Source of the DNA: Gongronella butleri
Taxonomy: Eukaryota; Mucoromycota; Mucoromycetes; Mucorales; Cunninghamellaceae
DNA length: 64,000 bases
Assembly (NCBI GenBank): GCA_025201375.1
Contig: JAIWZP010000006.1
Coordinates: 62,001-126,000 of the forward strand
Reading direction: 5' to 3'
The notes under the pieces are model-generated. The model was not told the DNA's origin and did no database searches. It saw only the letters and a program-made list of their open reading frames with translations. Below, piece by piece: positions 11,170 to 49,100 of the stretch (within the stretch, counting starts at the first letter, position 1; every line of letters starts with the position of its first letter). A program made the position numbers and the translations under genes.

Positions 11170-11510
11170 AAGCACAAATGTCAACTGATTTGAATTTTGC
11201 ACCCAAATAAAAGTGTTTGTCCGTCCATGTTTCGATATCAGTAGACAGAAACTGACGCGTGCTATCATTTCAATGCCTGCAGCTTCTCGCTACACTGCAC
11301 AAAAACATACGTATTCCCCTTTTAAACACCAAACAGCGCGTTTTTCAGATTTTGCCGGCCTGCTGTGCCTCCAGTTTTTTTTTTTTTTTTTTTTTTTTTG
11401 CAGCCTTCTCTCGCCACCAACGAAAAAAGCGTCACGGTATAAACTACGGCCCAGTGCTCATGAAGACGGACTCGCCCGATTTTTTTTATGAGCAGATGAA
11501 TCGTGCTTAT
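11170..11510 (+). repeat. Dispersed repeat D, copy B (empty site for the MITE)
   Basis: Aligns with 6950-7520 minus the MITE. It also carries a run of about 23 T near 11375-11397. Confidence 0.75.
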
Positions 11511-24845: not shown

Positions 24846-25120
24846 TTTGCTTCCCGCCCCCCCCCTCTTTTTTTATTCATCTTTTTCATCCATTTGTGCA
24901 ATATACCTTTCATTTTCTTCATCCATTAAAGCTGCCACACGCGCGATTGTGCCTTTGTGGTGCGTGACGTGCCGGTAATTCAATCCCCGACGCGCGCTGC
25001 CTTTTTTTTTTTTTTTTTTTTTACCCGCCTTGCTGGGTTTCATTGTCCTTTTTTTGCTTTTGCTTTTTCATTTTTGCTTTTTCTTTTCTTCCTTTCTCTA
25101 TTTCGTTGTCTTATGATCTT

Positions 25121-28100
25121 ATGAATAGTCCGCGAAGCAGCAGTCGAGCACCTCATGTTGTGTTTCTGATCGACACGGCGATGGTGGCAGGCGGCGCTTA
25201 CCAAGAAAAGAGCGTGGAGGCCATGATACTGCGGATCGTGCTGTTTTTCCTTGACTGCGTGGATGAGCGTATGACGTGGGGTTACTGCCTTGTGGACAGT
25301 GCTCACGACACGGGCACGAGCATTTGCAGCCGGCGATTCTTTGAAGCGACGCGTGCAGCTGTCAGCGAATGCATGGCGGCGGTCCGAGCAAGCATCACGG
25401 CTTCGTTGGAGTTGCCTGCGACTGCAAAGAAGGGGTGCCGGTTCCTGAGCCTGAAAAAGACGCTGATGCAGCTGCTGGGCGACTTTCAATGGAAGGATAT
25501 TGGTCATCTAGGCACTTCACCGCGAGCAAATCGTGTGCGTGCCACATTGGATAGACCATCCTTGCCTATTGTCAATTATTTGTACGTCTTGTCGCACCGC
25601 CCGACCACCGGCGACGATCTGTACACCTTTGTCCATGGCCACAGCCATCAACAGCATGGCAAATCGCGTAAAAATGCGCGTGTCAACCTCGTCGACATCC
25701 ACGACCATCTCCATCACGCCGCAGACGAGCTCAAGCGCCTGCTCTGGGAGGGCTGTGCCAACCAGAACTTGTCCATCAGCTGGATCGACATGCCAATCCA
25801 GCCATTGAACGCATCCGACCCATCAGTAAGATCCAATTGGGCCAATTGGGCCCATTTACCTCTGAAATGTTGGAACAAAGTGGGCTCATTATACTTTTAT
25901 TTTTTATCAATCTAGGACGCCGACATGCTGATCCAGAGCGGATTCAAGGCCCTGATGGCCATGTTTGGCGGCGATCTGGTGCCTGGCGCGCTCATGCACA
26001 TGGACGACGACGGGCATGGCTTATCCTTTGCCACACGCTTCCTTCCATATCGCCACACACTCATGTACGCCACGCCACAATTTCGATGGCATGTCCAGCG
26101 CGACCATCTCACAAAAACAAAGATCCTTGTCCATCCTATGCCCGACCGCCGCTCACAACCCCTCTGGCAAGGCCCACTCACACATCTTGACAAGAGTAAA
26201 AAAGGTTAGAAAGAACCAAAAAGAGAACAAAGGGACAAAAAAGTGAAAAAAGTAAAAAAAAAAAACCGAGAAAAAAGTGAGAAAAAAAACGGAAAAGCTC
26301 ATGAAGTTGATTAGATGGTTTGCACGTCGAGGTGCATGCATTGGACAAGGAGGTGCCATCGTGGCTTTTGGAACTGTTTTCGACGCTTGGGGGCCTGGAG
26401 GCGCAGCAGCAGGTCGCCCTGGCGCGTGCGTCTGCGATCATGGACGCGCCGGCCGCGTATGCGTGTGCGCTGCATTGCCAAGATACCCTGTTTGCCACCA
26501 TGATGGACAAACTTGAGCGCCATCGGCTCGTGCTCACCCTGACCATGCATTACAGCGCATCCGACCATCAAGAGAACCAATGGACTGGCGTGCTCGAACC
26601 ATTGGGCCCGTCGTGTGGCGCCCTCACACTCTTTCCAGGCGTGGCAAAGACGGCGCCAGATATGACCGCCGTGCCTGAAGAAGAAAAAGAGCCTGTCCTG
26701 GCCACCGAATGGCAGGATTGGCTGCCGCTGCAGTCCACCGCCCAAGCGATTCTCGATGACATTGCACACCATGACCCCAAGGACACCGAAATAGACAAAA
26801 ATGACGACACATTCTTTCTCTCCTTGGACATGACCATACCCGCCGCGCTCGAACATCTCCTGGTCAAGCAAAAGAACCCAGAGACAACGTATGAAGAAAA
26901 AAAAAAAAAAAAGAAAAAAAATAAGAGAAATGAGTGATTGACTTCATTTTTGCACATTTTTTTTTTAGTCCCGAGCCCAGCACAAAACCCCCCGCCATCG
27001 ACAACGCGGCTGTCAGCAAGCCGGCACGCCCCATGCCCGACACAGTCGATGCATTGAAACTGGCATTGACCGCGTTTTACCTCGATACAATGTACTCCCC
27101 CAATGTGCGTCACTCAAAAAGAATTAGGTTTTTTATCTTTGTGCGTGTGCTGACCCTCCCTTATTTTTTTTTACCAATAGTATACCTGGCGTGATGCCAT
27201 CATGTATATCCTGTCGGCTGTGGAGCATTTGATGAATGCGCTGCAGGCCGACAATGACACGTTTAGCGGCATTGCCGCGGCATTGCAAGCGATGCTCCTG
27301 TCATCTGACCAATTTGATGAAAAACACCGCACGGCCCTGCCGATGCTGCTTGCCCAGAAGCGCAAACCCGTCAAGCAATCACAAGAACAAGCTGCACTGC
27401 GCGCGTGGATCGATGACATGCGAAAACGCAATACACTAGATCGCCCCGAATTCGACGAAATGTGCTTCAAGGCGCTCAAAATCAAAGAGTAAGGCCCCAT
27501 TTGAGAAATGAAAAAGGAAAAAAAGAAAAAAAAGCGAGGCGAAATGCTCATCCATCTTTTTTTTTCTTTTTCTAGTGCCAAATTGCAGATTGTGTTGCAC
27601 TTGGTGCGGATGCACGTGCATGCGCGTGAGCGCAGCCTGGTTGAATCTCGCAAGCAAGTCACAGGCAGCAAACGCGACCGTGGCAAGGCAGACCCCGTGC
27701 ATGACGACCTTCTCGAGAAATTAGAGGAGTATTTTGATCGGATGGCCATCTGGGAATCGGTGAGCAGCATGGAAAGCTTCCTGCGCGACCTAGACGCCGA
27801 AGCGGCCGACAAGTCATTCCATCGAATTGATTCCGCCGACATTAACTTGCAAACCTATTGCACTCACCTGAACAAAGGGTAATAGTTTCTTCGTTTATTT
27901 TTTCAAAAGAAGAAAAAAAGAGACGTTAACCCCGTTTTTTTTTTAATCAGTTTTAACAAGCTGATGCCGAGCGTGATGCAGCGATTGAACGAAAAGGTGG
28001 ACCATTCCGAGGATACGGGCGACGACACAGACTCATTGGTGATTCCCAAGCGGCGCAAGACACTGCTCGAGAAGCGGCTGCGCGGTTCAAGCGGTGGCGA

Positions 28101-29227: not shown

Positions 29228-30529
29228 GCTCAAAATAAAAAAAAAGGACCAATATTCTCTTTTCTAGTTTGACTTTTGTGCATTGAATTTGCTTTATAGG
29301 GGTTGAGCAGCTAGTCTGCTTGTGTGGTGCAATAAAAAAAAAATGGTGATCGGGAAGCTGAAGATAGAGAACATCGCGATTGAAGTTTTTTTTTTTTCAT
29401 TGTATTTTGGTTGTTTGTTGATGAAATCACAGTCAAGGCAAGGAGCCGCGAGTTTGTCGAGACGATACCGGGGCTTGCTCGTTCAAAAGGGTCCACTCTT
29501 GGCGTGCCGCAATCCATTGGACGACGCGCAATCACTATTTTTGAAAAGGATTGATTGAGGAATTGAAAAAAAAGAAATTTAGGATGTCAGATTGCTACAC
29601 ATTCAATCCACGTGATAAAACACATCCCATCCACCGACGAAATCGACTAACAAAAGGGGATCCCGTGGCTAGTTTTGGCTCAGAATGAGTCCATTTGAGA
29701 TTCTAATGTTGGTTCAAGGCCATCTCAACGAAAAACGCTTGCATCTCCGAGAAATGCCCATCATCAGAAAGAGCATGGCTTGCTGCGTTCTTGATCATTG
29801 GTGATCGATGAAAAAAAAGTGGTTTTTCGGTATTTTTGACGCGGTCACAGACTCATAGGCAAATTTTAGACGCGTGAAAAAGCGCGTCAAGCATCAAGTT
29901 ACACGCGCCTGTTTCAAATCAAATCCAAGCACATGGTACGTTTCTTGCCAGTGGACGCGTCAGTGCGGCTTCATGGACGCGTTTCCCTATGCAATTTACA
30001 TTTTAAATTCCATTAATCTATAATCGCTCAATGCTCGCCAACAAACTTATCAACCACGCTTTTTTTTTATACGTGTAGTAAATTCTCCACGCGTTTCATT
30101 CTTTTGAATGACTTTGGGATGATTCTGGAGACCCATTTTCTCGAGGTTAGTTTCATCTTGCCGTTGCTAACTTTTTATTTGTGTGTACCCCATCCCAAGA
30201 CATTTTTAGCAACTAAAAGCCAAGCGCACCCGGTTTTCCAGCTTGCCATTTCACAATGGGGTTGTGTTACGGGGACGTCTCAAGGCTCTGATGGCGATTT
30301 TATGCTGATTAAACCTCCTCTTGAAAAAGAGTGATTTTTTACTGTGCTCCACCTGCCGCGCCAGAAAAGGGCGACCTGTTGACGCCCATCGCGGATTTCC
30401 AGGGGATAACGCGGGAGAAAAGGACGTGCCGACCAAGCTGGACCTCCCTTTAATTACCTCAAACGACGTTTTTTTCGCTTTCGTTTTCTTTTCTTTTCTA
30501 TTCTTTTCTACATATTAAAAATTCCAGCT
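29228..30529. other. Intergenic with partial dispersed repeat R
   Basis: 29690-30060 aligns with the 3' two-thirds of repeat R (CATCTCCGAGAAAT, CAGAAAGAGCATG, TTTTTGACGCG, AAGTTACACGCG, GGACGCGT). No gene is recognised elsewhere in it. Confidence 0.6.
29690..30060 (+). repeat. Dispersed repeat R, copy 2 (partial)
   Basis: Same word order as 21330-21670 and 44770-45090. The 5' part of the repeat is missing. Confidence 0.7.
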
Positions 30530-30646
30530 CTTGATGCGACACGCACAATAAGCCATAGACATGCACGACAAAAACCCGCAACACGCAAACACCATACGAT
30601 TGCAACATGTTTTTGGACGAAAATTCTCTTTTGCCGTCCTGATTTG
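30530..30646 (+). pseudogene. Decayed 3' end of a sixth multi-HTH gene
   Basis: The sequence ending TTTTTGGACGAAAATTC...GTCCTGATTTGA at 30610-30646 matches the last codons of the intact copies (..FL-EIPFVVLI stop) with a one-base frameshift. The upstream bases correspond to the basic Thr/Ala/Asn tail. The following ~250 bp (GACACGATGCTAAGCGCAATTG..., TTGAGCAGCCATTCAA..., GCAAAAATAAAATAAAATCGC) is the same 3' flank seen after each intact copy. Nothing upstream of 30530 matches, so only the 3' tip survives. Confidence 0.8.
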
Positions 30647-30844
30647 ACACGATGCTAAGCGCAATTGAATTGTTTTGTGCCCAATTGCATCATCCACTGA
30701 CTTGAGCAGCCATTCAAGTTTTGATTGATGCGTCAGGAACGCGGTATTGACACTACACGAAGCAAAAATAAAATAAAATCGCATACTTTCCAGATTTTAC
30801 AGAAGTGACTCGGAAAAGGAACCATTCAAAGTCCATGTGGGATC

Positions 30845-30960
30845 AACGCGGTTCAGGGGCCAAGAAGGAGCGGCGATTTGATCGGCGTGCCAATCGCGGA
30901 TTGTCCCTTTTTTTTTTTTTTTTTTTTGCCTGTTTTTCTCTTTTTTCTTTTTTTTTTTCT
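30845..30960 (+). promoter_or_regulatory. Promoter block of HTH copy 1 (diverged) plus pyrimidine tract
   Basis: Corresponds to the conserved block before copies 2-5, but the ACGCGT core reads AACGCG (30845-30850). A CT/T tract runs from 30905 to just before the ATG. Confidence 0.5.
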
Positions 30961-30971
30961 TTCTTGTCGCC

Positions 30972-32042
30972 ATGCGTCCCAACAAACGTTGCCGTCTCAC
31001 ACCCGGCGATCGAGCTCGCGTAAAGAAGTTGCTCCTTAGCGGCATGCCACGCAAGGAGGTCGCGGCCAATTGCGGTGTTTCGATTGATACCGTGAATCTT
31101 ATCTACCACCAGCCCGAAAATTTTGTGCATACTGCTCGCATAAGTCGTATCGAAGGTGAAACCGAGAAGCAGATGGTGCAGATGCTTCAAAATGGCGAAT
31201 CCTCCGCCAAAATTAGCCTTGCGCTTGGCATTAGCTGCAAGCGGGTCCGTGAGGTGCGCAAAAAGCACAAAATCCCTGTCCCTAAGGCTTTTTCCAACCA
31301 TCGACTAACAGAGCAGCAAAAACAAGACATTAAACGTCAGCTTGAATCTGGAAAACACACGATTACACACATTGCTAAAGTATGCAATGTGGGTGTTGCC
31401 ACCGTCACCAAATTAAGAAGGGAATTCAAAATCCCGGGCCCGCCATGCTCCAGACGTCTTAGCGAAAGCACCAGGGAGGAAATCATCAAGCTTCTGTTAG
31501 CAGGCGCGCAGTCGTCGACCGTCTTGAAGCAATTTGGCATCTGTGCGGCGACATTGCACGAGATTCGCAAGCAAAACAACATCCCCGTCACCGGGCCAGG
31601 CAGACCAATCAGCGACGCGCTCGGCCAAACGATCACGCGCCTTCTTGAGCGAGGCAAAACCATAAGCGAGGTTGCCACCATCACGGGAGTCATGACGGAA
31701 ACTGTCGCCAGGAGAAGGCGATGGCGTTTTGGCGACCGTCCCAGCCAATTGTACCCACCAGAAAAGGTTGAAAGGATCAAGCGACTCATTGCTCAGGGTC
31801 TGTACCCTCGTACAGTGGCAGAAATGGTCGGCATCAGCGATTCCAGCATCTATGGATTCATCAAAGCGCATAATCTGAAAGCCAATTATATGGCTCCTCG
31901 AGCTTCCAGGAAGCACGGTCCTCGGCGCAACACATATAAAAAAAACCTAGCGGCACAAGCAACGACACATGCGGCAAACGCGCAAAATTCATGCAGTGGC
32001 ATCAAGTTTTTGGAGGAAATCCCTTTTGTCGTCCTGATTTGA
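30972..32042 (+). CDS. Multi-HTH protein, copy 1 (six HTH modules)
   Basis: Intronless, 356 aa. Six consecutive ~45-50-residue helix-turn-helix modules fill residues ~8-303: HTH1 ~8-48 (LTPGDRARVKKLLLSGMPRK), HTH2 ~62-104, HTH3 ~112-157, HTH4 ~163-208 (SSTVLKQFGICAATLHEIRK), HTH5 ~213-257 (followed by RRRRWRFG) and HTH6 ~261-303. Each has the pattern long basic helix, short turn, I/V-A..GVS..TV recognition helix, as in homeodomain-like HTHs of Tc1/pogo-type transposases and resolvases. A basic Ala/Thr/Asn linker follows and the end is ..FLEEIPFVVLI. No DDE catalytic residues, zinc cluster or other domain are visible. It is probably a nuclear DNA-binding protein; target unknown. First of five tandem paralogs. 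Start ATG directly follows a poly-T/CT tract, as in the other copies. Confidence 0.85.
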   Translation: MRPNKRCRLTPGDRARVKKLLLSGMPRKEVAANCGVSIDTVNLIYHQPENFVHTARISRIEGETEKQMVQMLQNGESSAKISLALGISCKRVREVRKKHKIPVPKAFSNHRLTEQQKQDIKRQLESGKHTITHIAKVCNVGVATVTKLRREFKIPGPPCSRRLSESTREEIIKLLLAGAQSSTVLKQFGICAATLHEIRKQNNIPVTGPGRPISDALGQTITRLLERGKTISEVATITGVMTETVARRRRWRFGDRPSQLYPPEKVERIKRLIAQGLYPRTVAEMVGISDSSIYGFIKAHNLKANYMAPRASRKHGPRRNTYKKNLAAQATTHAANAQNSCSGIKFLEEIPFVVLI

Positions 32043-32343
32043 CACGACGCTGCGCGCAATTGGTTTACTTTGTGTTCCATTTCATCCATCGAATCGAGCA
32101 GCCATTCAATGTTTGTTTGGTGCGTCAGAGGCGCGGCATTGACTTGCAAGAAGCGAAAAATAAATAAATAAAATCGCCTACAGCCGTGGCTTTTACAGAT
32201 TTTGACCCAGAAAAGGGCATATGTTTGGACTCGAGTGGCATTGACGCGTTTCAGGCACTTGAGATGAAAGCGGCGATGTGATCGGTGCGCCAATTCCCCC
32301 GCCCCCTCCCTTTTTTTTTTACTCTTTTTTCTTCGTTGTCGCT
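32043..32343 (+). promoter_or_regulatory. Shared 3' flank and promoter, copy 1 to copy 2
   Basis: First half: the 3' flank (CTTGCAAGAAGCGAAAAATAAATAAATAAAATCGCC) with poly(A) signals. Second half: a block conserved before each copy, TTTTACAGATTTT..., GGCATTGACGCGTTTCAGGC with a perfect MluI box ACGCGT at 32244-32249, and GATGAAAGCGGCGAT. Then comes a pyrimidine tract up to the ATG at 32344. Binding by an MBF-like cell-cycle factor is inference. Confidence 0.6.
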
Positions 32344-33414
32344 ATGCGTCTCAATAAACGCTGCCACCTCACAAGAGGCGATCGGGCAAAAGTGAAGAAG
32401 CTTCTCCAAAGGGGTATGCTACCACGCGAGGTGGCCGCCCAGTGTGACATTTCTGTCGACACTGTTCGCCGCGTCCAACTCGAGCCCGAGAATTATATGC
32501 CTTCCCGAGCACCTCTCGACACTGAAACCGAGAAGCGGATTGTGCAAATGCTTCAAAATGGCGATACTGCAAATAAAATTAGTCTTGAGCTTGGCGTCAG
32601 CGACAAAAGGATCTGGGCGGTGCGCAAAAGGTACAAAATCCCCGTTCCACAGGCATATGCTCGGATTCCAATACCAGACGAGAAAAAACAAGCAATCAGG
32701 CGCCTGCTCGAAGCCAACCACACCAACACGTACGCTGCAAAAGAACACAATGTCACTCTCCGAGCTGTTGCCAAAATAAGAAAAGAATTCAACATTCCGG
32801 GTCTGCCATGTCACCGACGCCTTGACGAAAGCACCAGGGAAGAAATCATCAAGCTTCTTTTGGACGGCGCGCAATCGTCGACCGTGTTGAAGCAATTTGG
32901 CATCTGTGCGGCGACATTGCACGAGATTCGCAAGCAAAACAACATTCCTGTCACCGGTCCAGGCAGGCCAATCAGCGATGCATTGGGCAAAAAGATCACG
33001 CGACTTCTTGAGCAAGGCCTGACGGACAATGCGATCGCGGCCATCACGGGTGTTGTGAAAATGACTGTTGCCAGAAGAAGGCGATGGCGTTTTGGTGAAC
33101 GTCCAAGCCCATTTTACCCACCAGAAAAGATAGAAACAATCAAAAAACTCCTTGCTGACGGTCTCTATCCGCGCAAAGTCGCAGAAAAGGTCGGCATCAA
33201 CTGTTCCAACATCTATAGACTCATCAACAGACACAATCTAAAAGTCAATTATGAAGTTCCTAAAAAAGCCAAAATCTACGGTGCTCGCTTCAATCCACAT
33301 ATGAAAAAGATAGCGGCGCATGCGACGATGCGTGCGACAAACGCCCAAGATACGCAAAATTCATGCAATGGCATCACATTTTTGGACGAAATTCCCTTTG
33401 TCGTTATGATTTGA
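32344..33414 (+). CDS. Multi-HTH protein, copy 2 (six HTH modules)
   Basis: Intronless, 356 aa, same six-module layout as copy 1. I chose ATG 32344 because it aligns with the start of every other copy; an in-frame extension to 32278 encodes only a Pro/Phe run from the pyrimidine tract. HTH1 recognition segment ISVDTVRRVQLEP differs from copy 1 (VSIDTVNLIYHQP). HTH3 is of the NHTNTYAAKEHNVTLRAVAK type shared with copies 3-5 and unlike copy 1. HTH4 is nearly identical to all copies. The C-terminal tail ends FLDEIPFVVMI. The function is as for copy 1, a predicted DNA-binding protein. Confidence 0.85.
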   Translation: MRLNKRCHLTRGDRAKVKKLLQRGMLPREVAAQCDISVDTVRRVQLEPENYMPSRAPLDTETEKRIVQMLQNGDTANKISLELGVSDKRIWAVRKRYKIPVPQAYARIPIPDEKKQAIRRLLEANHTNTYAAKEHNVTLRAVAKIRKEFNIPGLPCHRRLDESTREEIIKLLLDGAQSSTVLKQFGICAATLHEIRKQNNIPVTGPGRPISDALGKKITRLLEQGLTDNAIAAITGVVKMTVARRRRWRFGERPSPFYPPEKIETIKKLLADGLYPRKVAEKVGINCSNIYRLINRHNLKVNYEVPKKAKIYGARFNPHMKKIAAHATMRATNAQDTQNSCNGITFLDEIPFVVMI

Positions 33415-33734
33415 CACGGTGTTGTGCGCATTTGATTTGCTCTGTGCCCCTTTACATCGTCAATCGACTTGAGCAGCCATTCGAGGTTGATCGGTGCGTC
33501 AAGGGCGCAGTATTGACACTGCCAAAAACAAAAAAAATAAATAAAATTGCCTACATTCGTGACCTTTTACAGATATTTACGCAGAAAAGGGCGTCTTGTC
33601 GGGCGCCAATGGCATTGACGCGTTTCAGGCAACTGAGATGAAGCAGCGATTTGATCTGTGTGAGAATTCCCGCCCCTGTCCCCCCCCCTTTTTTTTTTTT
33701 TTTGCTTTTTTCTCTCTTTTTCTTTATTGAGCTT
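33415..33734 (+). promoter_or_regulatory. Shared 3' flank and promoter, copy 2 to copy 3
   Basis: Same order of blocks as between copies 1 and 2: GACACGGTGTTGTGCGCA, TTGAGCAGCCATTCGAGG, AATAAATAAAATTGCC, TTTTACAGATATTTACGCAG, then GGCATTGACGCGTTTCAGGC with ACGCGT at 33618-33623, then a C/T tract to the ATG at 33735. Confidence 0.6.
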
Positions 33735-34988
33735 ATGCGTCCCCATAAAAACTGCAACCTGACAAGAGGCGATCGGATAAAAGTGAAGCAACTGCTTCAA
33801 AGGGGTCTGCTGCCACGCGAGGTGGCCGCCCAGTGTGGTGTTTCAGCCGAGACTGTTCGCCGCGTCCAAAAACAGCCAGTGACTTTTGTGCCTTCCCGAG
33901 CACCTCCCGATGCTGAAACCGAGAAGCGAATGGTGCAAATGCTTCAAAATGGCGATTCTGCAAACAAAATCGGTCTTGAGCTTGGCGTGAGCTACAACAG
34001 GATCCGTGCGGCGCGCGAAACGCATAAAATTCCCATTCCACGGGCATATGCTGGGATTCCAATGCCAGACGAACAAAAACAAGCAATTAGACGCCTGCTC
34101 GAAGCCAACCACACCAACACGTACGCTGCAAAAGCACACAACGTCAGTCTTTACATGGTTGCAAAAATAAGAAAAGAATTCAACATTCCGGGTCTGCCAT
34201 GTCACCGACGCCTTGACGAAAGCACCCGTGAAGAAATCATCAAGCTTCTTTTGGCTGGCGCGCAATCGTCGACCGTGTTGAAGCAGTTTGGCATCTGCGG
34301 GGCGACATTGCACGAGATTCGCAAGCAAAATAACATCCCTGTCACCGGTCCAGGCAGACCAATCAGCGAAGCGCTGGGCAAAAAGATCACGCGCCTTCTT
34401 GAGCAAGGCTTGACCGACAATGAGGTCGTGCGCATCACGGGTGTCGTGAAATCAACTGTTGCCAGAAGAAGGAGATGGCGTTTTGGCGAGCGTCCAAGTC
34501 CATTTTACTCCGCAGCCAAGATTGAAAGGATCAAGCGACTCCTTGCTAAGGGTCTGTACCCTCGTATAGTGGCAGAAAAGGTCGGCATCAGCTGTTCGAG
34601 CTTGTATACGTTCATCAACAGACACAATCTAAAAGTCAATTATGCAGCTCCTAAAAAGGCCATATCGCGCGGTCCAGGTCCAGTGTACCCACCAGAAAAG
34701 GCTGGAATGATCAAAAAACTTCTTGCTGATGGTCTGTACCCGCGCAGAGTGGCAGAAAAGGTCGGCATCAGTTATGCGAGCATCTATGGATTCATCAAAA
34801 CGCGCAATTTACAAGACATCAACTGGGAGGGTTCTCGAGGGGCCAAGAAGTGCAGTCCTCAGCGCAAGCCACGTACAAGAAGGCTGGCGTCGCAAGTGAC
34901 GACGCGTGCGACAAACGCCCAAGATACGCAAAATTCATGCAATGGCATCACATTTTTGGACGAAATCCCCTTTGTCGTCCTGATTTGA
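33735..34988 (+). CDS. Multi-HTH protein, copy 3 (seven HTH modules)
   Basis: Intronless, 417 aa; start chosen by alignment with the other copies. Modules 1-6 match the family. After HTH6 (YSAAKIERIKRLLAKGLYPR) there is a further copy of that module (PVYPPEKAGMIKKLLADGLY) so that HTH6 occurs twice, adding 61 residues (183 bp). The second copy is closer to the YPPEK-type of copies 1, 2 and 5 than to its neighbour, which suggests unequal exchange between paralogs rather than simple local slippage. The basic tail and FLDEIPFVVLI end are kept. The module count is therefore evolvable in this locus. Confidence 0.85.
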   Translation: MRPHKNCNLTRGDRIKVKQLLQRGLLPREVAAQCGVSAETVRRVQKQPVTFVPSRAPPDAETEKRMVQMLQNGDSANKIGLELGVSYNRIRAARETHKIPIPRAYAGIPMPDEQKQAIRRLLEANHTNTYAAKAHNVSLYMVAKIRKEFNIPGLPCHRRLDESTREEIIKLLLAGAQSSTVLKQFGICGATLHEIRKQNNIPVTGPGRPISEALGKKITRLLEQGLTDNEVVRITGVVKSTVARRRRWRFGERPSPFYSAAKIERIKRLLAKGLYPRIVAEKVGISCSSLYTFINRHNLKVNYAAPKKAISRGPGPVYPPEKAGMIKKLLADGLYPRRVAEKVGISYASIYGFIKTRNLQDINWEGSRGAKKCSPQRKPRTRRLASQVTTRATNAQDTQNSCNGITFLDEIPFVVLI

Positions 34989-35259
34989 CACGGCGCTGTG
35001 TGCAATTGATTTGTTTTGTGCCCCTTTACATCGTCAATCGACTTGAGCAGCCATTCGACGTTGATTAGTGGCGTCAGGGGCGCAGCGATGACACTGCAAA
35101 AACAAAAAAATAAACAAAATCGCTTACATTCGTGACCTTTTACAGATTTTTACGCAGAAAAAGGTATCGACTTGCCGGGCTCCGAGGGCATTGACGCGTT
35201 TCAGGCAATTGAGATGAAGCGGTGATTTGATCGGTGTGAGAATTCCCGTCCCTGTCCAC

Positions 35260-35309
<50 letters not shown>

Positions 35310-35335
35310 TTATCTCTCTTTTTCTTTATTGAGCT
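34989..35335 (+). promoter_or_regulatory. Shared 3' flank and promoter, copy 3 to copy 4
   Basis: Blocks as in the other spacers: AATAAACAAAATCGCTTACATTCGTGACC, TTTTACAGATTTTTACGCAG and GGCATTGACGCGTTTCAGGC with ACGCGT at 35194-35199. A run of 44 T (35263-35306) is the longest in the array and lies shortly before the ATG at 35336. Confidence 0.6.
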
Positions 35336-36406
35336 ATGCGTCCGAATAAACACTGCAACCTCACAAGAGGCGATCGGATAAAAGTGAAGCAACTGCTCCA
35401 AAGGGGTCTACTGCCACGCGAGGTGGCCGCCCAGTGTGGTGTTACGGCCAACACTGTTCGCCGCGTCCAACAGCAGCCCGTGACTTTTGTGCCTCCCCGA
35501 GGGCCTCCCGACGCTGAAACCGAGAAGCGAATGGTGCAAATGCTTCGAAATGGCGATTCTGCGATAAAAATCGGTCTTGAGCTTGGCGTGGGCTACAAAA
35601 GGATCCGTGCGGCGCGCGAAACGTACAATATCCCCCTCCCACGGGCATATGCCGGGATTCCAATGCCAGACGAGCAAAAACAAGCAATTAGGCACCTGCT
35701 CGAAACCAACCACACCAACAGATACGCTGCAAAAGCACACAACGTCAGTCTTTACATGGTTGCAAAAATAAGAAAAGAATTCAATTTGCCTTTTCAACCA
35801 TATGCTCGACGCCTTGACGAAAGCACCAGGGAAGAAATCATCAAGCTTCTTTTGGCCGGCGCGCAATCGTCGACTGTGTTGAAGCAGTTTGGCATCTGTG
35901 GGGCGACATTGCACGAGATTCGCAAGCAAAACAACATCCCTGTCACCGGTCCAGGCAGACCAATCAGCGACGCGCTGGGCAAAAAGATCACGCGCCTTCT
36001 TGAGCAAGGTTTGACCGACAATGAGATTGTGCGCATCACGGGCGTCGTGAAAGAAACAGTTGCCAGAAGAAGAAGATGGCGTTTTGGTGAGCGTCCAAGT
36101 CCATTTTACTCCGCAGCCAAGATTGAAAGGATCAAGCGACTCCTTGCTGACGGTCTGTACCCTCGTGCAGTGGCAGAAAAGGTCGGCATCAGCTATTCCA
36201 GTATCTATGGATTCATCAAATCGCACAATCTAAAAGTCAACTGGGAGTCTCCTCAGTCGGCCAAGAAGCGCGGCCCTCAACGCAATCCATACAGGAAAAA
36301 GCTAGCGGATCAAGCAACGACGCGTGCGACAAACGCTCACGACACGCAAAAACCGCACAATGGCATCAATTTTTTGGATGCAATCCCCTTTGTCGTGCTG
36401 ATTTGA
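35336..36406 (+). CDS. Multi-HTH protein, copy 4 (six HTH modules)
   Basis: Intronless, 356 aa. It is closest to copy 3 in the first half (HTH1 LTRGDRIKVKQLLQRGLLPR; HTH1 recognition VTANTVRRVQQQP). HTH4 is nearly invariant (CGATLHEIRK variant shared with copy 3). HTH6 is the YSAAKIERIKRLLADGLYPR form, followed by a Gly/Lys-rich stretch shared with copy 5 (KKRGPQRNPYRKK). It ends FLDAIPFVVLI. Predicted DNA-binding protein without catalytic domain. Confidence 0.85.
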   Translation: MRPNKHCNLTRGDRIKVKQLLQRGLLPREVAAQCGVTANTVRRVQQQPVTFVPPRGPPDAETEKRMVQMLRNGDSAIKIGLELGVGYKRIRAARETYNIPLPRAYAGIPMPDEQKQAIRHLLETNHTNRYAAKAHNVSLYMVAKIRKEFNLPFQPYARRLDESTREEIIKLLLAGAQSSTVLKQFGICGATLHEIRKQNNIPVTGPGRPISDALGKKITRLLEQGLTDNEIVRITGVVKETVARRRRWRFGERPSPFYSAAKIERIKRLLADGLYPRAVAEKVGISYSSIYGFIKSHNLKVNWESPQSAKKRGPQRNPYRKKLADQATTRATNAHDTQKPHNGINFLDAIPFVVLI

Positions 36407-36753
36407 CACGGCGCTGCGAGTAATTGATTTATTTTGTGCCCCATTGCATCATCATCCATCGAGTTGAGCAGCTATTCAATGTTTGCATGGTGCACCAGGG
36501 ACGCGGTATTGGGCTTGCTATAAGCAAAAAAAAAGAAATGAATAAAATAAAATCGCCTACTGTATATCCGTGAATTTTTACAGATTTTTACCCAGAGAAA
36601 GGGCGTCTCGTCGGACTCGAATGGCATTGACGCGTTCAGGCTGCTGAGATGAAGCGGCGATCGGCGTACCAATCGCGGATTACGCCCCCGCCCCTCTTTT
36701 TTTTTTTTTGTTTTTTTTCTCCCTTTCTTTTTCTTTGGTATCGCCAACTCGCT
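36407..36753 (+). promoter_or_regulatory. Shared 3' flank and promoter, copy 4 to copy 5
   Basis: As in the other spacers: AATAAAATAAAATCGCC, then the ATTGACGCGTTCAGG block with ACGCGT at 36630-36635, then a CT tract to the ATG at 36754. This spacer differs by TACTGTA (36558-36564) where the other spacers have only TA, the form expected of a transposon excision scar. Confidence 0.6.
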
Positions 36754-37824
36754 ATGCGTCCCAATAAACATTGCAACTTCACACCGGGCGATCGGAAAAA
36801 GGTGAAGCAGCTTCTCGAAAGTGGTATGCTGCCACGCGAGGTGGCCGCCCAATGTGGTGCTACTGTCAGCACAATTTACCGCGTCCAAAAGCAGCCCCTG
36901 ACTTTTGTGTCTTCCCGAGCGCCTCCCGACGCTGAAACTGAGAAGCGAATGGTGCAAATGCTTCAAAATGGCGAATCCGGGTCCAAAGTTAGCCTTGAGC
37001 TTGGCGTGAGCCTCAACAGAATCCGGGCGGCGCGCGAAACGTACAAAATCCCCATCCCAGAGGCATTTAATTGCCCTCCCGTGACGGAGCAGCAAAAACA
37101 AGAAATTAAGCGCCTGCTCGAAACCAACCACACCAACACGTACGCCGCGAAAGCATGCAACGTCAGTCTCCAAGTTGTTGCCAAGATAAGAAAAGAAAAC
37201 AACATTCCAGGCCAGCCATGTTCCAGACGCCTTGATGAAAGCACCAAGGAAGAAATTATCAAGCTTCTTTTAACCCGCACGCCGTCGTCGACCATCATGA
37301 AGCAATTTGGCATCTGCGCGGCAACATTGCACGAGATTCGCAAGCAAAACAACATCCCCGTCACTGGTCCAGGCAGACCAATCAGCGACGAAATGGGCAA
37401 AGCGATCACGCGACTCCTTGAGCAAGGCAAAACCATCAGGGAAATCGTGGCAATCACGGGTGTCACAGACGCAACAGTAACCAGAAGAAGGCGATGGCGG
37501 TTTGGCGATCCTCCTAGCAAGTTTTATCCACCAGACAAGGTTGAAAAAATCAAACGACTCCTTGCTGACGGTTTGTACCCTCGTGCAGTGGCAGAAAAGG
37601 TCGGCATCAGTTATTCCGGCATCTATGGATTCATCAAATCGCACAATCTAAAAGTCAACTGGGAGTCTCCTCTGGCGGCCAAGAAGCGCGGCCCTCAACG
37701 CAATCCATACAGGAAAAAGCTAGCGGCGCAAGAAACGACGCGTGCGACAAACGCTCACGACACGCAAAAATCGCACAACGACATCAATTTTTTGGATGCA
37801 ATCCCCTTTGTCGTGCTGATTTGA
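36754..37824 (+). CDS. Multi-HTH protein, copy 5 (six HTH modules)
   Basis: Intronless, 356 aa; ATG 36754 aligns with the other copies, and the in-frame extension upstream is Phe-rich translation of the T tract. HTH1 is distinct (LESGMLPREVAAQCGATVST), HTH2 is EAFNCPPV-linked like copy 1 in its linker, and HTH4 has the variant TPSSTIMKQFGICAATLHEI. HTH5 matches copy 1 more closely (EQGKTIREIVAITGV) than copies 2-4, suggesting exchange of segments between array ends. It ends FLDAIPFVVLI. Predicted DNA-binding protein, last of the array. Confidence 0.85.
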   Translation: MRPNKHCNFTPGDRKKVKQLLESGMLPREVAAQCGATVSTIYRVQKQPLTFVSSRAPPDAETEKRMVQMLQNGESGSKVSLELGVSLNRIRAARETYKIPIPEAFNCPPVTEQQKQEIKRLLETNHTNTYAAKACNVSLQVVAKIRKENNIPGQPCSRRLDESTKEEIIKLLLTRTPSSTIMKQFGICAATLHEIRKQNNIPVTGPGRPISDEMGKAITRLLEQGKTIREIVAITGVTDATVTRRRRWRFGDPPSKFYPPDKVEKIKRLLADGLYPRAVAEKVGISYSGIYGFIKSHNLKVNWESPLAAKKRGPQRNPYRKKLAAQETTRATNAHDTQKSHNDINFLDAIPFVVLI

Positions 37825-38391
37825 CACGGCGCTGCGAGCAATTGGTATTTATTTTGTGCCCCGTTGCATCATCATCCATCGACTTGAGCAGCCATTCAAG
37901 GTTTATTTGTTTGGTGCGCCAGGAACGCTATGATACATTGGCTTGCTACTGTAGAAGCAAAAAAAAATATATATATATCATACTGTAAATAAAATTGCGT
38001 ATATCCGTGGCTTTTATTTCAAGAGCCAGTGCTGAATTTGTGAAAATAACGGCGTTTGGATTCATCTGGGCAACGGTCTAATAAACCTCAAGTCTTTAAT
38101 GATTTGCAGTGTTGTAAAGAGGCGTATGGAAACAGCCTACAGTATCATAATGAAAAGTTTTGCATGAACCCAATCATGGCTTTATGGTGTTGACTGAAAA
38201 TCAAGCATGTAAAATGGTCAGTGTCAGGCACGTTTTTTTTTTCTTTTTGGCAGCCGTCAAACGGCCCCACGTTGCTCAGATTTGAGTCCCCGCTCGCACT
38301 GCATGGAAATGCTGAAAAGGCGGTGCCTTTAATTTCTCGTTTCTTCGTTGCTTCCGCTCTTTTTCATCTTCATTTTACCTTTTTCATTGCA
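37825..38391. other. End of the HTH array and promoter of the golgin gene
   Basis: 37825-38015 is the array 3' flank with TACTGTA insertions at 37947-37953 and 37981-37987 relative to other spacers. 38028-38115 is dispersed repeat E, copy 2. TACAGTA occurs at 38138-38144. From about 38337 the DNA is pyrimidine-rich up to the golgin ATG. Confidence 0.6.
38028..38115 (+). repeat. Dispersed repeat E, copy 2
   Basis: Matches 8876-8970 (AATTTGTGAAAATAACGGC, GGATTCAT, TTTGCAG). It starts directly after the HTH array flank. Confidence 0.65.
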
Positions 38392-43727: not shown

Positions 43728-46101
43728 GCTTTTAATAAATCGTCTTGAAGCTCAGTGTCTCTAATCCAAGCAAGCCATTTGGATAGACTTTGTGTTTTAT
43801 TTTTAATTTTTGTTTCTGTGTCCCAAGCGTGCTTTGCATTATCAAAGACGAACCAGCATGGTAGATCACGAATATTCTTCTTTTAGTTTGGTCTTGAGTG
43901 CGTCATGCATTGCCGAATAAGCGGGTCATGCAGGCGCCCAAATGCTCAAAAGACGCCTGCTAGTGTAATGGTACGTTGGTTTGCCAAAAACAACCAAAAT
44001 CCCTTCTGAGTACCGATTTTAAGGATAATTCGCGTCAAATCCATTGCCCTGCATTGCTAGTTCGGGGATATATTGTCAGTCAGATGGCGCGCATATTGTA
44101 AAAAGAAAAAGCCAGATTTTATAAAATAATGTTCAGATTTGGATCACACATTGGGGAATCTGATGTCTTTCGACAGATTTTTTTTTCCATAATGATAGCT
44201 AGTGATGGCGAGTCGCATATTGCTTTGTTTATCACGGCAGAGCGCAATGGTAGGTTGTCCATTGCCCAAGCCATTCGGGATTAAAACCTTTAATCGCGGT
44301 TTTGCCAGTGGGCATGTCCTTTTATCGCGACAGCCAGGCGCTTGACAAATGATGCGCAAGCATGTCTCTTTCCAACGAAACAAGTTTCACGAGACCAAGA
44401 AGCAATCTAAAACCTAGAAACCCGCGTTTAAAGCATTTTTAGTGTATTTTGGTCACTTATCAGCAAGCGTATGCCAAAACTATGTAATCAGCTGTTTGAT
44501 TGACGCTTCTAGCCTTTGTCGTTCAAATGAGCCCACCCTGACAACACTGGGATCATTAGATGACGCGCAATGCCAATTTTCAAAACCACGGATTTTCCTA
44601 GGGGTACAGTCGTGGATTTGAAACGGGTGAAATTTTGGTTCTCAGATCGCTGCGCCATTCATCCCCATGGTGGACGGCCTTCCTTTCACCGATAGAGACG
44701 CCATAAAACCCTGGGACCCGTTGACTGGTTATCGCGTAAAACGCGAAATGCTGTAAATTTTCACTCCAAGGCCAACTCAACGAGAATTGACCACAGTGCC
44801 ATAAAAGTCATCTCATCAAAAAGAGCACGACGAGGACCATGCTTGGACATGGGTGATCTTAGAAAAAAGCATTTTTTTGGCATTTTTGACGCGATCACAA
44901 AACCGTAGACAATTTTCAACGCGTGAAAAAGCGCGTCAAGCATCGAGTTACACGCACATGTTCTTAATCAAATCCATGCTTCTAGCATCTCTCTAGTTAT
45001 TGAACGCGTCAGTGCGGCCACATCAACGCGTTCTTTTCGTGCAAATCGCGGTTGAAATTTTATCCAAAATTGCCCATTGCTCGAGAACCGGCCATTGGAT
45101 CGCCCTCTTTTTTGGCATTTTCGTGGTTTCTACATGGCTATCCACTTATGTATGCAAGTTTGACGTAGATCCGCGAACCTAATTTTTCAATTTTGGGTTG
45201 GGCACCTGGCCACGACAAAAATTTGATTTTCATGTGACGCGCTTCAAACGCGTGTGACGACTGCAAATGGCGTCCCACCCGATATTTCATGCTTGCCAAT
45301 TTACGTCTGGCTACGTTTTCGAGTTTCACGGCTGGCTTGCTGGCATGTAAAAGTTGATTTACCGCTAAAATCAAGTTTTTTTTTGTGAATTCTCTCGAAC
45401 TCGTTGTCTAAATGGTGCGCAAACTGGGAACAGCTGCAGAACAAGGTAATGAATCAATGATGCCAGGCTTTTTTTTGTATTCGGCCATTAACGAGCAGAT
45501 GCCCAAAGCCATGGTACCGAGCGAAATTGACCCTCAATAAGCAAACTCACCAAGATTGTTCGAATCACCTCACTCTTGCAACCGTTTTTTACAATGTCAT
45601 CTTTTTCATTTCTTTGGCGTCTCGCTTGCTTTGATTGATTGTGAGTTTTGCTCAGTAAATGGTCAAAATATGCGTTACTTTGCCAATTTTCACTCTTTTG
45701 ATCAGAATCTCGTAGACTAGCGCTTCAAACAATTGTTCGAATTCTGTCAATCATCCGTCGAGGTAGCACTTGATCCAAGTTTGACAGAGATCTGGTCGAT
45801 ACAGTGCTAGCAATTCATTGATTTGGTGCATTTTGGTTTTCTTGGTGCCTAATCAAGCGTTTGTTTGAGCCTGATGCGTATTAAACTCGTTGTGGCATCT
45901 CCGCACACAACAAGTTTTGATGTAAATCGGCTCGATGCATCATGGTCATACAGTACTCGCAAAACCGAAAAAAAACAGCGAAATGAAGTCCAGTGGACCC
46001 GATTTTATTATGCTAATGGTAAAATGCATTATCTATGGTAAGTGTGGAATAGAAAAAAAATATACATGCAAAAGATGAAAAGAAAAATAAAGACGTTGGG
46101 A
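43728..46101. other. Intergenic with dispersed repeat R
   Basis: 44500-45200 is repeat R (full-length copy). The rest has no recognisable gene, tRNA or domain. One TACAGTA lies at 45949-45955. The right end holds the 3' end of the minus-strand ATPase. Confidence 0.5.
44500..45200 (+). repeat. Dispersed repeat R, copy 3
   Basis: The same ordered blocks as 21080-21760, from TTCAAATGAGCCCACC to TATGCAAGTTTGACG, including the ACGCGT-rich centre (AACGCGTGAAAAAGCGCGTC). Confidence 0.75.
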
Positions 46102-49100
46102 TTACACTTGAGAGGCGCCGGGAAGCACGGGCTGGGCGTGCAATGGCTTCATGAACTTTCGCTTGCACGCCTTGTAAACCTCGCCATAGAAAATATAAAA
46201 GATGACGAGGCCGACGGTCAAGCCCCATTCCCAGGTGATGCCGAGCATGCGGAAGCCCAAGATGGCCACGGATGGGATGTACATGAACAGACATAGGAGC
46301 ACAAGGTCGCACAAAATGGTGATCATCAATGTCTTGGATTTGAGCGTTTGGATGATGCCCTCACGGTTCCACTCGACATTGCGGAAGCTGCGGCAGTGCA
46401 CCATGACAAACAGGTAGCCAAGACTGGCCGTCGCAAGCAGCGAGCCGCGCGCACGGTAAAAATTAGTGCATACGTCCGCCTGGAAGTTGGAGTCGCAGTC
46501 CACGCCCTCCACACCATTGCCCAACGTGTACAGAGGCACAAAGAACGAGATCAAACAGATGCTAAATGAGACGAAAAAAGAAAAAAAAAACAGAAAAAAG
46601 GGCGCATTGTCAGTCAATTGGTCTTTTTTTTTTACGCTTGCATGACGCGTCGCCCTCTTTTTTTCGTGCTGTGTGCGACTTACATAGTGAGCATGAGACC
46701 ATAGGCCACGGTGTCCATGATGATTTCCTTGTTAAAGATGCTCTCGGTGGGTGGACGAGGGGGTTCAATCATCACAGTCTTGGATGCAGGTTGGACACTG
46801 AGCGCACCGGCTGGCGGCGTGACCACTATGAGCAAGTATCAGGTGAGTTGCGTGCTCCAATTGCTTAAAAACTCAAAAAACTCAAAAAATAAAAAGCTTA
46901 CCAATATAAAGGAGCAGGATTTGCAGAGTGGACAGGGGTGCGGCCGTCTTTCCAGAGGGATCGCGCACAGCGAGACACACCAGAATCAAGAGAGCAATGC
47001 CAAACAGGGTGATCCAGTAGTACAAGAGGAAGCGCTGCATATTTTGGTAGATGCGTCGTCCCTCGGCAATGGCACGGATGATTGTTGCGAAATTGTCGTC
47101 TGTCAAGATAATGTCGGATGCTTGCTTGGCGACGTCGCTGCCATTCTTGCCCATGGCAATGCCAACGTCGGCAATGCGCAGCGACGGGGAGTCATTGACA
47201 CCATCGCCGGTCATGGCACTGATGTTGTTTCGGCGCTTGGAGGCATTGATCATCTTGACCTTGGTTTCCGGCGAGCAGCGCGCCACCACGAGCGGCAATT
47301 CCTCGAGGGCGTCGATTTCGTCATCGGTCATCGCATCGAATTGGGTGCCGGTCATGACCAAACGGCGCAATGTCTCGGCAGACATGGTAGTTTCGTCCAA
47401 AATCTTGATTTCCTTGGCAATCGCCGTGGCCGTGATCTCGTGGTCGCCCGTGAGCATGTGCACCGAGATGCCCGCACGATGCGCTTCCTCGACGGCCTGC
47501 TTGGACTCGGGTCGGGGCGGGTCGTAGATGCCCGTCAGGCCCAAAAACACGAGATCTTGCTCCAATTGGTCACGCGACATGTTTTCGGCACCTTTGGCGG
47601 TGACACCGTCCATGACGCGGTACGCCATGGCCATGACACGCAGGCCCTTGGCACCCAATTGGTCGACGGTGGCCAAGATTTCCTTGAGCTGCGTGTTTTC
47701 CAGGTTGGTGCACAGTGGCGCGATGCGCTCGGCGGCGCCCTTTGTGAATAGAATCGGGGATGCATTGTCCTTGGTGCACAGGGTGGACATGCGCTTGATG
47801 GACGAGTCGAATGGCAGCTCCACGGCCACTTGCCAGCCTTGTTCTTCGAGCGCGGGCTTGCCCAATTGGAACTTGTGGGCAAACACCTGGAGGGCGACCT
47901 CGGTGGGCGCGCCATTGGCCACCCAATCGTCGCTGATGGTCGCGTCATTGTCGTCCTTCTTCAATTCGCCGTTGGCATTCGCGTCCTTCTTTTCGTCCAT
48001 GGGCATGGTGAGGGACGATGCATTGTCTTGTTGGCTGTTGGTTTCCGAGTTTGGCAAGTCTTGCTGGCGATAGATGCTGGACATGTTGCACAAGGCTGCG
48101 CACTGTACGAGGCGCAGCAAATCGCCGTCAATCGCGTCCTTTTCGATCAATTGGCCGTTTGTGTTCTCGTCGTCGCCCTTTAACACTTGCGATTGGTACA
48201 CGTTGCCGGTCGGTGCGAGGCCATTGGGCTCCACATAAAAGAAGCCGCGGTCCAGCATCCAAAAGCGCACAACCACCATCTTGGCCAGGGTCAATGTGCC
48301 GGTCTTGTCGCTGAAAATGTCGGTGACGGAGCCAAGGGTCTCGAGGGATTTGAGTTTGCGCACAATGGCCTTTTGGTTGGTCATTTCCTTGCCGCCCAGA
48401 ACGAGCGTCACGGTCATGACCGTTGTCAGACCAGCAGGCAGCACCGATAGTGCCGCTGTCATCGCATACATGCCAACGTCATAATTGGCCTGGAATTTCA
48501 CAGACGCGAGAACGATAATCACACACAAGACAGATGCAATGAGCAACACCGTGTACATCTTGTTCAAGCTCTTTTGCAACCGCGTCATGTCGCCATCCTT
48601 GTTTTCATCCAGTTTGGTGGCAATGCTGCCAATTTCCGTGTGCATGCCGCATGCCGTCACAATGGCCTGGCCGCGACCCTTTGGCACAATCGTCGAGCTG
48701 TACACCATATTGATGCGATCACCCAATGGCTCGTCTGACCACAAAAAAAAAAAAAAAATGTGTGAGCAAACCTGGCCAATGATCGTCTTTTTTCTTTTTT
48801 TCTGTTTTTTTTTTCTGATGCTTTACCCTCACGCTCCAAATTGACCAATTGCTTGACAACAGGAACGGATTCGCCGGTGAGGAGGGCCTCGTCAATTTCG
48901 AGGTTGGAGACAAAGAACAAGCGGCCGTCTGCGGGGACCGAGTTGCCGGATTCGACGACGAGGACGTCGCCGGGGACCAATTCACGGCTGGCGATGGTTT
49001 GCGTGGTACCGTCGCGGATAACAGTGGCCATGGGCGACGACAGGCTGCGCAGCGCCGCCAGTGTCTGCTCGGCGGCGTATTCTTGCGAAAACGACAGGTA

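What the first reader, a model, noticed from the sequence alone, without database searches (positions are those of the whole stretch)
30530..38015. Tandem array of five proteins built only of helix-turn-helix modules
Five intronless paralogs stand head to tail at about 1.4-1.6 kb intervals. Each consists of six (once seven) successive HTH modules of Tc1/pogo/resolvase type plus a basic tail that ends FL(D/E)(E/A)IPFVV(L/M)I, with no catalytic, kinase or zinc domain. Seen: module count, tandem order, shared flanks. Known: single or paired HTHs are common in transposases and regulators; I know of no described family of six or more in series without another domain. Inferred: a sequence-specific DNA-binding family in which each module could read several bases, perhaps a domesticated transposase-derived regulator or genome-defence factor.
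Basis: partly seen in the sequence, partly recalled or inferred. Interest (0 to 1): 0.92.

Follow-up and report, generated by a model that had tools for sequence, protein, structure and literature searches.

The report
Fungal proteins made of HTH arrays
A soil fungus carries an apparently undescribed family of genes whose proteins are strings of about five to eleven small DNA-gripping units ending in one shared tail, and the units vary most where they should touch DNA, as if the family were evolving to read many different DNA sequences.

Summary
Five intact, intronless, head-to-tail genes (30972-37824) encode proteins of six (once seven) helix-turn-helix (HTH) modules and a shared C-terminal tail; a decayed sixth copy lies upstream. 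The host is Gongronella butleri (Mucorales). The cluster belongs to a genome-wide family: 23 intact array genes with the tail, 12 broken or partial copies and one tailless relative, in two subfamilies. Pfam finds HTH domains in 23 of 23 and no catalytic domain among the families shown. AlphaFold gives beads on a string: six modules in one member, eight in another. The window genes are under purifying selection (dN/dS 0.33-0.51). Change concentrates at recognition-helix positions 30, 31, 34, 35: in subfamily B dN/dS is 1.2 there against 0.4 at other exposed sites (disjoint set 1.05 against 0.39; closest trio 2.3; window 0.65 against 0.28). This fits a repertoire of DNA readers with changing specificities and one constant recruiter tail, a design like animal KRAB-zinc-finger repressors but built of HTHs. 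The nearest natural relative by profile is archaeal Cbp1 (three HTHs). Targets, expression and the tail's partner are unknown; silencing of mobile DNA is only inferred.

The parts
30566..30790 (+). decayed sixth copy: remnant of tail and 3' spacer
   Evidence: repeat families D13, D14, D18; 69-74% identity of 30530-30971 to the five downstream tail-spacer stretches; stops in three frames, tail region read as MFLDENSLLPS
30972..32042 (+). copy w1, 356 aa, six HTH modules plus tail (FLEEIPFVVLI)
32344..33414 (+). copy w2, 356 aa, six HTH modules plus tail (FLDEIPFVVMI)
33735..34988 (+). copy w3, 417 aa, seven HTH modules plus tail (FLDEIPFVVLI)
   Evidence: the alignment shows one extra module next to module 6
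34686..34811 (+). seventh module of w3, residues 318-359
35336..36406 (+). copy w4, 356 aa, six HTH modules plus tail (FLDAIPFVVLI)
35366..35473 (+). w4 module 1 (residues 11-46, three helices)
   Evidence: AlphaFold2
35513..35623 (+). w4 module 2 (residues 60-96)
35669..35779 (+). w4 module 3 (residues 112-148)
35819..35932 (+). w4 module 4 (residues 162-199), the most constrained module of the cluster
   Evidence: dN/dS 0.09-0.36 in the 10 pairs
35969..36085 (+). w4 module 5 (residues 212-250)
36113..36223 (+). w4 module 6 (residues 260-296)
36371..36403 (+). w4 C-terminal tail motif FLDAIPFVVLI, predicted disordered in the monomer
   Evidence: related tails in the family
36754..37824 (+). 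copy w5, 356 aa from the paralogue-like ATG (391 aa from the upstream ATG at 36649), six HTH modules plus tail
32244..32249 (.). ACGCGT box 100 bases upstream of w2; like boxes at 33618 (w3), 35194 (w4), 36630 (w5); function not tested

Best explanation
This is a lineage-restricted family of nuclear DNA-reading proteins. Each protein is a flexible string of about five to eleven Tc1/resolvase-type HTH modules; successive modules are expected to dock along consecutive subsites of one DNA target, as the three HTHs of archaeal Cbp1 do. The conserved C-terminal tail recruits one shared partner, most likely a chromatin or transcription factor. The repertoire grows by tandem and dispersed gene duplication and by duplication of single modules, and specificities change by substitutions in the recognition helices. 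The most likely use is sequence-directed repression of repeated or mobile DNA, by analogy with KRAB- and FiNZ-zinc-finger proteins. Shown here: architecture, intactness, purifying selection on the scaffold, focused variation on the predicted reading surface, conserved tail, family size and decay. Inferred: nuclear location, DNA binding itself, module-by-module reading, tail recruitment, and the nature of the targets.
For: HTH_23 in 23 of 23 members at E 0.001; of the 17 families at E 1e-7, 14 are HTH-type and 3 (DUF3071 in 2 members, FlgM and FAZ1_cons in 1 each) I take as spurious. AlphaFold2: six modules with a disordered tail in w4, eight modules in L056. Net positive charge in 23 of 23, +11 to +57. 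Nearest natural profile match is the tandem-HTH CRISPR-repeat-binding structure 2lvs, E 1.2e-7, and NCBIfam Cbp1, E 6e-13 to 2e-17 in 3 of 3 given but under its cut-off. Window copies dN/dS 0.33-0.51 in 10 of 10 pairs. In six subfamily-B proteins dN/dS is 1.20 (bootstrap 1.00-1.45) at positions 30, 31, 34, 35 against 0.38 at other exposed positions; in the closest trio 2.29 (1.46-3.76) against 0.46; in the window 0.65 (0.43-0.94) against 0.28. In a disjoint set of five B proteins it is 1.05 against 0.39, and positions 31, 30, 34, 20, 35 lead. The tail ends 22 of the 25 single ORFs in which the module model finds five or more modules at 5 bits. Module gain: w3 and L023, where modules 6 and 7 are identical.
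Against: No binding, expression or localisation data. A dN/dS near 1 can also mean relaxed constraint; a clear excess over 1 appears only in one trio (L055, L045, L044), where dS at the four positions is itself low (0.30 against 0.49 at other exposed positions), which raises the ratio. In the window it is below 1. The contact positions were settled after I had seen the entropy table and rest on recalled Hin contacts; with the two recalled contacts alone (31, 35) the window test is not significant (p 0.19; B p 0.019) and dN/dS is 1.09 and 0.94 in the two B sets. Positions 19-21, not in the recognition helix, are nearly as variable in B (1.02). Six or more DNA-bound HTHs per protein would be a very long site, so some modules may not touch DNA. 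No target sequence was identified.
Confidence: 0.55

Rival explanations
1. Ordinary transcription factors: a duplicated family of regulators of host genes, whose reading helices drift after duplication as paralogues take over different promoters. No conflict with mobile DNA is involved.
For: Purifying selection; conserved tail; 12 of 23 promoters hold an ACGCGT box at -90 to -175 where 1.4 would be expected at the window's density (6.0% of positions), so the genes may be regulated together; dN/dS at reading positions is near or below 1 in most comparisons.
Against: Turnover (12 broken or partial copies beside 23 intact), G. butleri proteins only in the one search that saw the family, and dN/dS 2.3 at reading positions in the closest trio would be unusual for regulators of fixed host genes.
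Confidence: 0.25
2. The genes are cargo or parts of mobile elements: the HTH array is an element-encoded DNA-binding protein, and copies spread with flanking repeats such as X.
For: Repeat X lies in the fetched flanks (about 1.5 kb a side) of 11 of 13 intact subfamily-B genes against 1 of 15 non-family loci; X and Y are dispersed repeats (839 and 458 first-look places, 40 scored each); long shared flanks between dispersed B copies, for example L021 and L025 at 75% over 3113 columns.
Against: X and Y are far more numerous than the genes; the open frames in the stretches read are at most 148 codons. The window cluster multiplies as a 1.4-1.6 kb tandem unit without X inside it. No DDE, integrase, reverse transcriptase or recombinase domain among the Pfam families shown for the 23 members; the neighbourhood beyond 1.5 kb was not read except in the window. 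Several X-bearing loci are tandem or recent duplicates, so the counts are not independent.
Confidence: 0.12
3. Chromosome-structure proteins that bind tandem satellite, centromere or subtelomere repeats; repeated near-identical modules match repeated DNA.
For: L023/L011 (612 aa) has a run of alike modules: 5-10 are 75-100% identical to their best partner, 6 and 7 identical, suited to a periodic target; Cbp1 also binds repeats (PMC10883916, passages).
Against: In most of the other members listed the modules of one protein differ strongly from each other, and the family is too diverse for one satellite; no satellite was looked for or identified.
Confidence: 0.08

Closest known systems
Cbp1, crenarchaeal CRISPR-repeat-binding protein (NF040595; structure 2lvs)
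   Same: Made of tandem HTHs that arose by domain duplication; the HTHs align in order along one DNA repeat, and the third recruits a chromatin protein; also found at transposon-associated sites (PMC10883916, abstract and passages). Best natural match by profile.
   Different: Three HTHs against about 5-11; archaeal; matches here lie below the curated family cut-off (48.9-63.4 against 140 bits); Cbp1 is not known to me to have a diversified paralogue repertoire or this tail (recalled).
KRAB- and FiNZ-zinc-finger repressors of transposable elements in vertebrates
   Same: A variable array of DNA-reading modules plus one constant short domain; lineage-specific gene families; dN/dS above 1 enriched at base-contacting residues in two of seven zebrafish clades tested (PMC10547256, passages).
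   Different: HTH modules, not C2H2 fingers; a C-terminal 11-residue tail, not an N-terminal KRAB or FiNZ domain; about two dozen intact genes; silencing untested.
Bipartite DNA-binding domains of Tc3 transposase, Sleeping Beauty and the Pax paired domain
   Different: Two HTHs (recalled); the transposases carry a catalytic domain, not found here.
Phage multi-HTH proteins phrog_664 and phrog_12058, and viral models in BFVD
   Same: Several HTH modules in series; phrog_12058 aligns with w4 residues 20-330 (E 9e-9).
   Different: phrog_12058 has no known function and phrog_664 is only 'DNA binding protein'; their tails were not examined; no phage genome matched by tblastn with one member, L009.
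TAL effectors and related repeat code readers
   Same: Idea of a modular protein with near-identical repeats reading successive DNA positions (recalled).
   Different: TAL repeats are short two-helix units of about 34 residues (recalled); here three-helix HTH modules about 50 residues apart.

Membership tests
Tc1/mariner/IS630 transposase | catalytic DDE/DDD domain | tested here: not met
   No DDE family in any of 23 members in the full list at E 1e-7 (17 families) nor among the 25 of 44 families shown at E 0.001
Tc1/mariner/IS630 transposase | N-terminal HTH of HTH_23 type | tested here: met
   HTH_23 in 23 of 23; the module model matches 4 of 6 Tc1 proteins of the same genome above the inclusion threshold
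Cbp1 (NF040595) | score above the curated cut-off of 140 bits | tested here: not met
   48.9, 53.4 and 63.4 bits for the 3 proteins given
Cbp1 (NF040595) | protein made of tandem HTHs only | tested here: met
   the short tail has no recognised domain
Cbp1 (NF040595) | binds CRISPR repeats | not testable with these tools
   needs a binding assay; no CRISPR search was made in this genome
KRAB/FiNZ-type array repressors (works like) | C2H2 zinc fingers | tested here: not met
   no zinc-finger family in the full Pfam list at E 1e-7 for 23 members
KRAB/FiNZ-type array repressors (works like) | variable DNA-reading array plus one constant short domain | tested here: met
   about 5-11 diverse modules and the common tail in 22 of 25 single ORFs with five or more modules; tail function unknown
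KRAB/FiNZ-type array repressors (works like) | dN/dS above 1 at base-contacting residues | tested here: inconclusive
   2.29 in one trio, 1.20 in six B, 1.05 in a disjoint set, 0.65 in the window; no site-model likelihood test available
KRAB/FiNZ-type array repressors (works like) | represses transposable elements | not testable with these tools
   needs deletion and RNA-seq
Pipsqueak (tandem psq HTHs) | psq-type HTH by profile | tested here: inconclusive
   not in the full Pfam list at E 1e-7 nor among 25 of 44 shown at E 0.001; one BFVD viral hit is annotated psq-type

The most novel reading that the evidence does not exclude
A fungus has independently evolved the equivalent of the vertebrate KRAB-zinc-finger system out of helix-turn-helix modules: a repertoire of HTH-array readers, enlarged by gene and module duplication and tuned at the recognition helices in a race with its own mobile repeats (X being a candidate target), all delivering one silencing partner through a constant tail, in subfamily B possibly by way of SUMO. 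The modules would form a further natural modular DNA-reading code beside zinc fingers and TAL repeats.
Probability: 0.25. Interest if true: 0.95.

Novelty: new variant of a known kind. Interest (0 to 1): 0.74.

Why it matters
If the reading is right, fungi have a protein-based, expandable DNA-recognition repertoire made of HTH modules, parallel to animal zinc-finger repressors. That would be a new natural source of modular DNA readers (one protein already holds a run of near-identical modules) and a tractable test of how array-type repressors arise. Even in the modest reading it is a gene family in a sequenced fungus, named only as hypothetical proteins where a name was seen (8 proteins), with an architecture for which the six literature searches aimed at it showed no description.

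Tried and rejected
Transposase remnant: rejected as the main reading (no DDE found, purifying selection, intact ORFs). Decay products: rejected for the five window genes; true of about a third of the family. Viral origin: two scans of viral contigs, driven by a few conserved peptides such as the tail, and one tblastn of phage genomes with L009 gave no relative; BFVD gave 23 fold hits at E 0.001 or better, many without a name, which show that HTH arrays exist in viruses but not descent. Bacterial origin: one scan of GTDB contigs with L023 gave none; it finds close relatives only. Foldseek against the PDB gave no match at E 0.001 or better; the best sequence-profile match is 8vd6 (E 3e-10), traced by its code to a protein-design paper (PMC12339374, search listing only), and the best natural one is 2lvs. 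Single-sequence PDB hits to HIV integrase are at chance level. FlgM and FAZ1_cons hits are in single members and are taken as artefacts; the NCBIfam FlgM hit in L023 covers 25 residues.

Literature: six searches were aimed at the family or its kind. They list at most 20 papers each, two of them out of thousands that match loosely, in an open-access library, so the absence of a description is weak evidence. Four more were for comparisons. Papers opened, passages only: PMC10883916, PMC10386755, PMC10547256.

Homologue searches in 5.8 billion proteins: w4 alone and A1 (only 7995 candidates scored) returned only the window's own proteins although other family members are in the collection, so they are weak evidence of absence. 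A2 (only 7994 candidates scored) returned eight G. butleri proteins at 35-49% identity and no other species: better evidence for restriction of subfamily B, still not proof.

Selection tests: the classes 'buried' and 'contact' were set by eye and from recall after I had seen column entropies. The disjoint set was run afterwards as a check and includes two broken copies (L022, L030). The window without w1 gives 0.89 (0.32-3.11) at the contact positions.
Full report
WHAT IS THERE. The window holds five intact head-to-tail ORFs on the + strand (30972-32042, 32344-33414, 33735-34988, 35336-36406, 36754-37824). They encode 356, 356, 417, 356 and 356 residues, and 5 of 5 end FL(D/E)(E/A)IPFVV(L/M)I. 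A module HMM trained on the family finds 6, 6, 7, 6 and 6 modules. The AlphaFold2 model of copy 4 (23-sequence alignment) has six three-helix units at residues 11-46, 60-96, 112-148, 162-199, 212-250 and 260-296, with block means of about 80-93 pLDDT, a disordered tail and pTM 0.32, that is, beads on a string with no fixed overall shape. A second member, L056 (eight sequences, mean pLDDT 70), gives eight such units. Upstream, 30566-30790 is a decayed remnant of a sixth copy.

HOST AND FAMILY. Database names of family members (BC940DRAFT proteins of Gongronella butleri), whose contig lengths equal those of contigs of this genome (for example 239125 and 93577 bases, C52 and C94), identify the genome as G. 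butleri, order Mucorales. Searches of the whole 33.0 Mb genome with a window protein, two other members and a tail pattern, with ORFs read, give 23 intact array genes with the tail (the rows of alignment A1), one intact divergent relative with five modules and another C-terminus (C45:617363), and 12 broken or partial copies: C34:710817, C44:108529, C45:693169 (possibly split by introns), C45:968335, C46:130781, C52:225437, C78:710961, C93:55925, C93:74282, C99:20635, C100:538252 and the window remnant. These counts are lower bounds. The tail pattern gave 26 places against 2 for the reversed control; I read 22 as family and 4 as chance. A1 was chosen by requiring the tail, so 'all of A1 have it' says nothing; counted without that choice, 22 of 25 single ORFs with five or more modules at 5 bits carry it. 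The other three are C78 and C93, whose frames break before it, and C45:617363. A maximum-likelihood tree separates subfamily A (10 rows, window included) from B (13 rows) at 100/99. The 23 members have 5-11 modules at a 0-bit threshold, one of them (L013) only 4 at 5 bits. Both gene duplication and module duplication are visible: w3 has an extra module, and in L023 modules 5-10 are 75-100% identical to their best partner, 6 and 7 being identical.

SELECTION. The window copies differ with dN/dS 0.33-0.51 in 10 of 10 pairs; module 4 is most constrained (0.09-0.36). Comparing modules of the same rank between paralogues, amino-acid differences peak at module positions 30, 31, 34, 35 and, in B, at 19-21 (permutation p 0.0008 in six B proteins and 0.022 in the window for 30, 31, 34, 35; for 31, 35 alone p 0.019 and 0.19; for 19-21 p 0.019 and 0.31). 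By alignment with Hin (shown), 31 and 35 correspond to the recognition-helix residues that I recall as base-contacting; this is recall, not a call. Codon counts give dN/dS 1.20 (1.00-1.45) at 30, 31, 34, 35 against 0.38 at other exposed positions in six B proteins; 2.29 (1.46-3.76) against 0.46 in the closest trio, where dS at the four positions is low (0.30 against 0.49) and raises the ratio; and 0.65 (0.43-0.94) against 0.28 in the window. A disjoint set of five B proteins (63 module pairs, two of the proteins broken copies) gives 1.05 against 0.39, with positions 31, 30, 34, 20 and 35 in the lead; 31 and 35 alone give 1.09 and 0.94 in the two B sets. So the scaffold is conserved and the predicted reading surface is free or driven to change. 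Relaxed constraint is not excluded except, tentatively, in the trio.

TAIL. The 11-residue tail is kept while overall identity to w4 falls to 19-33% in 18 of the 22 other members. It is acidic then hydrophobic. In subfamily B, 9 of 13 have a psi-K-x-E sequence in the 60 residues before the last 15 (shuffles 1.2; some matches may lie in the last module); 0 of 10 in A, where shuffles expect only 0.3. That psi-K-x-E is a SUMO consensus, and that a hydrophobic run beside acidic residues resembles a SUMO-interaction motif, is recalled and speculative.

SURROUNDINGS. A roughly 670-base dispersed repeat, X (839 first-look places, 40 scored), lies in the fetched flanks of 11 of 13 intact B genes, 2 of 6 A places (the window cluster counted once) and 1 of 15 non-family loci (family stretches are somewhat longer, and several B loci share descent). 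A second repeat, Y, has 458 first-look places (40 scored). The B genes thus sit beside X far more often than the few control loci; whether X is a target, a vehicle of duplication or a bystander is unknown. An ACGCGT box lies at -90 to -175 in 12 of 23 promoters examined; at the density of the window 6.0% of positions, or 1.4 of 23, would have one. Two of the 23 start positions are approximate, one upstream stretch is shorter than 175 bases, and the genes share descent. In fungi this hexamer is known as the MluI cell-cycle box (recalled).

HOW IT PROBABLY WORKS. Cbp1 is the best guide: its three HTHs, made by duplication, align along a CRISPR repeat in order; HTH3 recruits the chromatin protein Cren7, spurious transcription is suppressed, and further sites lie at transposons (PMC10883916, abstract and passages). 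By analogy each array here should read a composite site, and the tail should bring a shared partner. The combination of variable reader, constant short domain, lineage-specific growth and focused change at reading positions is what is described for KRAB and FiNZ zinc-finger repressors (PMC10547256, passages).

NOVELTY. Six literature searches aimed at such a family listed no description of it; they show short listings from an open-access library, so this is weak. The passages read in three papers do not mention it. The profile of subfamily B found only G. butleri proteins at E up to 1 (8 hits among 7994 scored candidates). Arrays of HTHs as such are not new: Cbp1 has three, and phage families have several. 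A diversified eukaryotic repertoire of about 5-11-module arrays with a common tail is new to me, hence 'new variant of a known kind'.

Noticed in passing
window 29666-30142, 21140-21810, 44559-45229; L025:2377-3046: Dispersed repeat X of about 670 bases, open frames at most 148 codons in the six stretches read, 839 first-look places in the genome; near 11 of 13 intact subfamily-B genes.
   Followed up: partly
window 10579-11385 (also 6904-7377, 10075-10293); L040:727-1217: Second dispersed repeat Y, 458 first-look places.
   Followed up: partly
window 32244, 33618, 35194, 36630 and promoters of other members: ACGCGT box at -90 to -175 in 12 of 23 family promoters, in the window copies before a long pyrimidine tract; possible cell-cycle box (recalled).
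   Followed up: partly
L023:1126-2961 (G000:C1:580544-582367): 612-residue member with eleven modules, several nearly identical: a natural candidate for reading a periodic DNA target.
   Followed up: partly
L077/L081/L082 (G000:C45:617363): Divergent relative, 463 aa, with five HTH modules, a Pro/Tyr-rich C-terminal half and no tail; may be nearer to the ancestral form.
   Followed up: partly
C-terminal 75 residues of 9 of 13 subfamily-B proteins: psi-K-x-E (SUMO-like) motif, absent in 10 of 10 subfamily-A proteins.
   Followed up: partly
L070, L071, L065, L057: Tc1-type transposases with open frames of 357-361 codons in the same genome, two of them nearly identical.
   Followed up: no
window 57710-59812, 53450-54751, 46885-48822, 12089-13732, 24968-25912: Ordinary neighbours: ABCC-type transporter, MFS protein, P-type ATPase, LRR protein, Treslin_N-like protein.
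   Followed up: no
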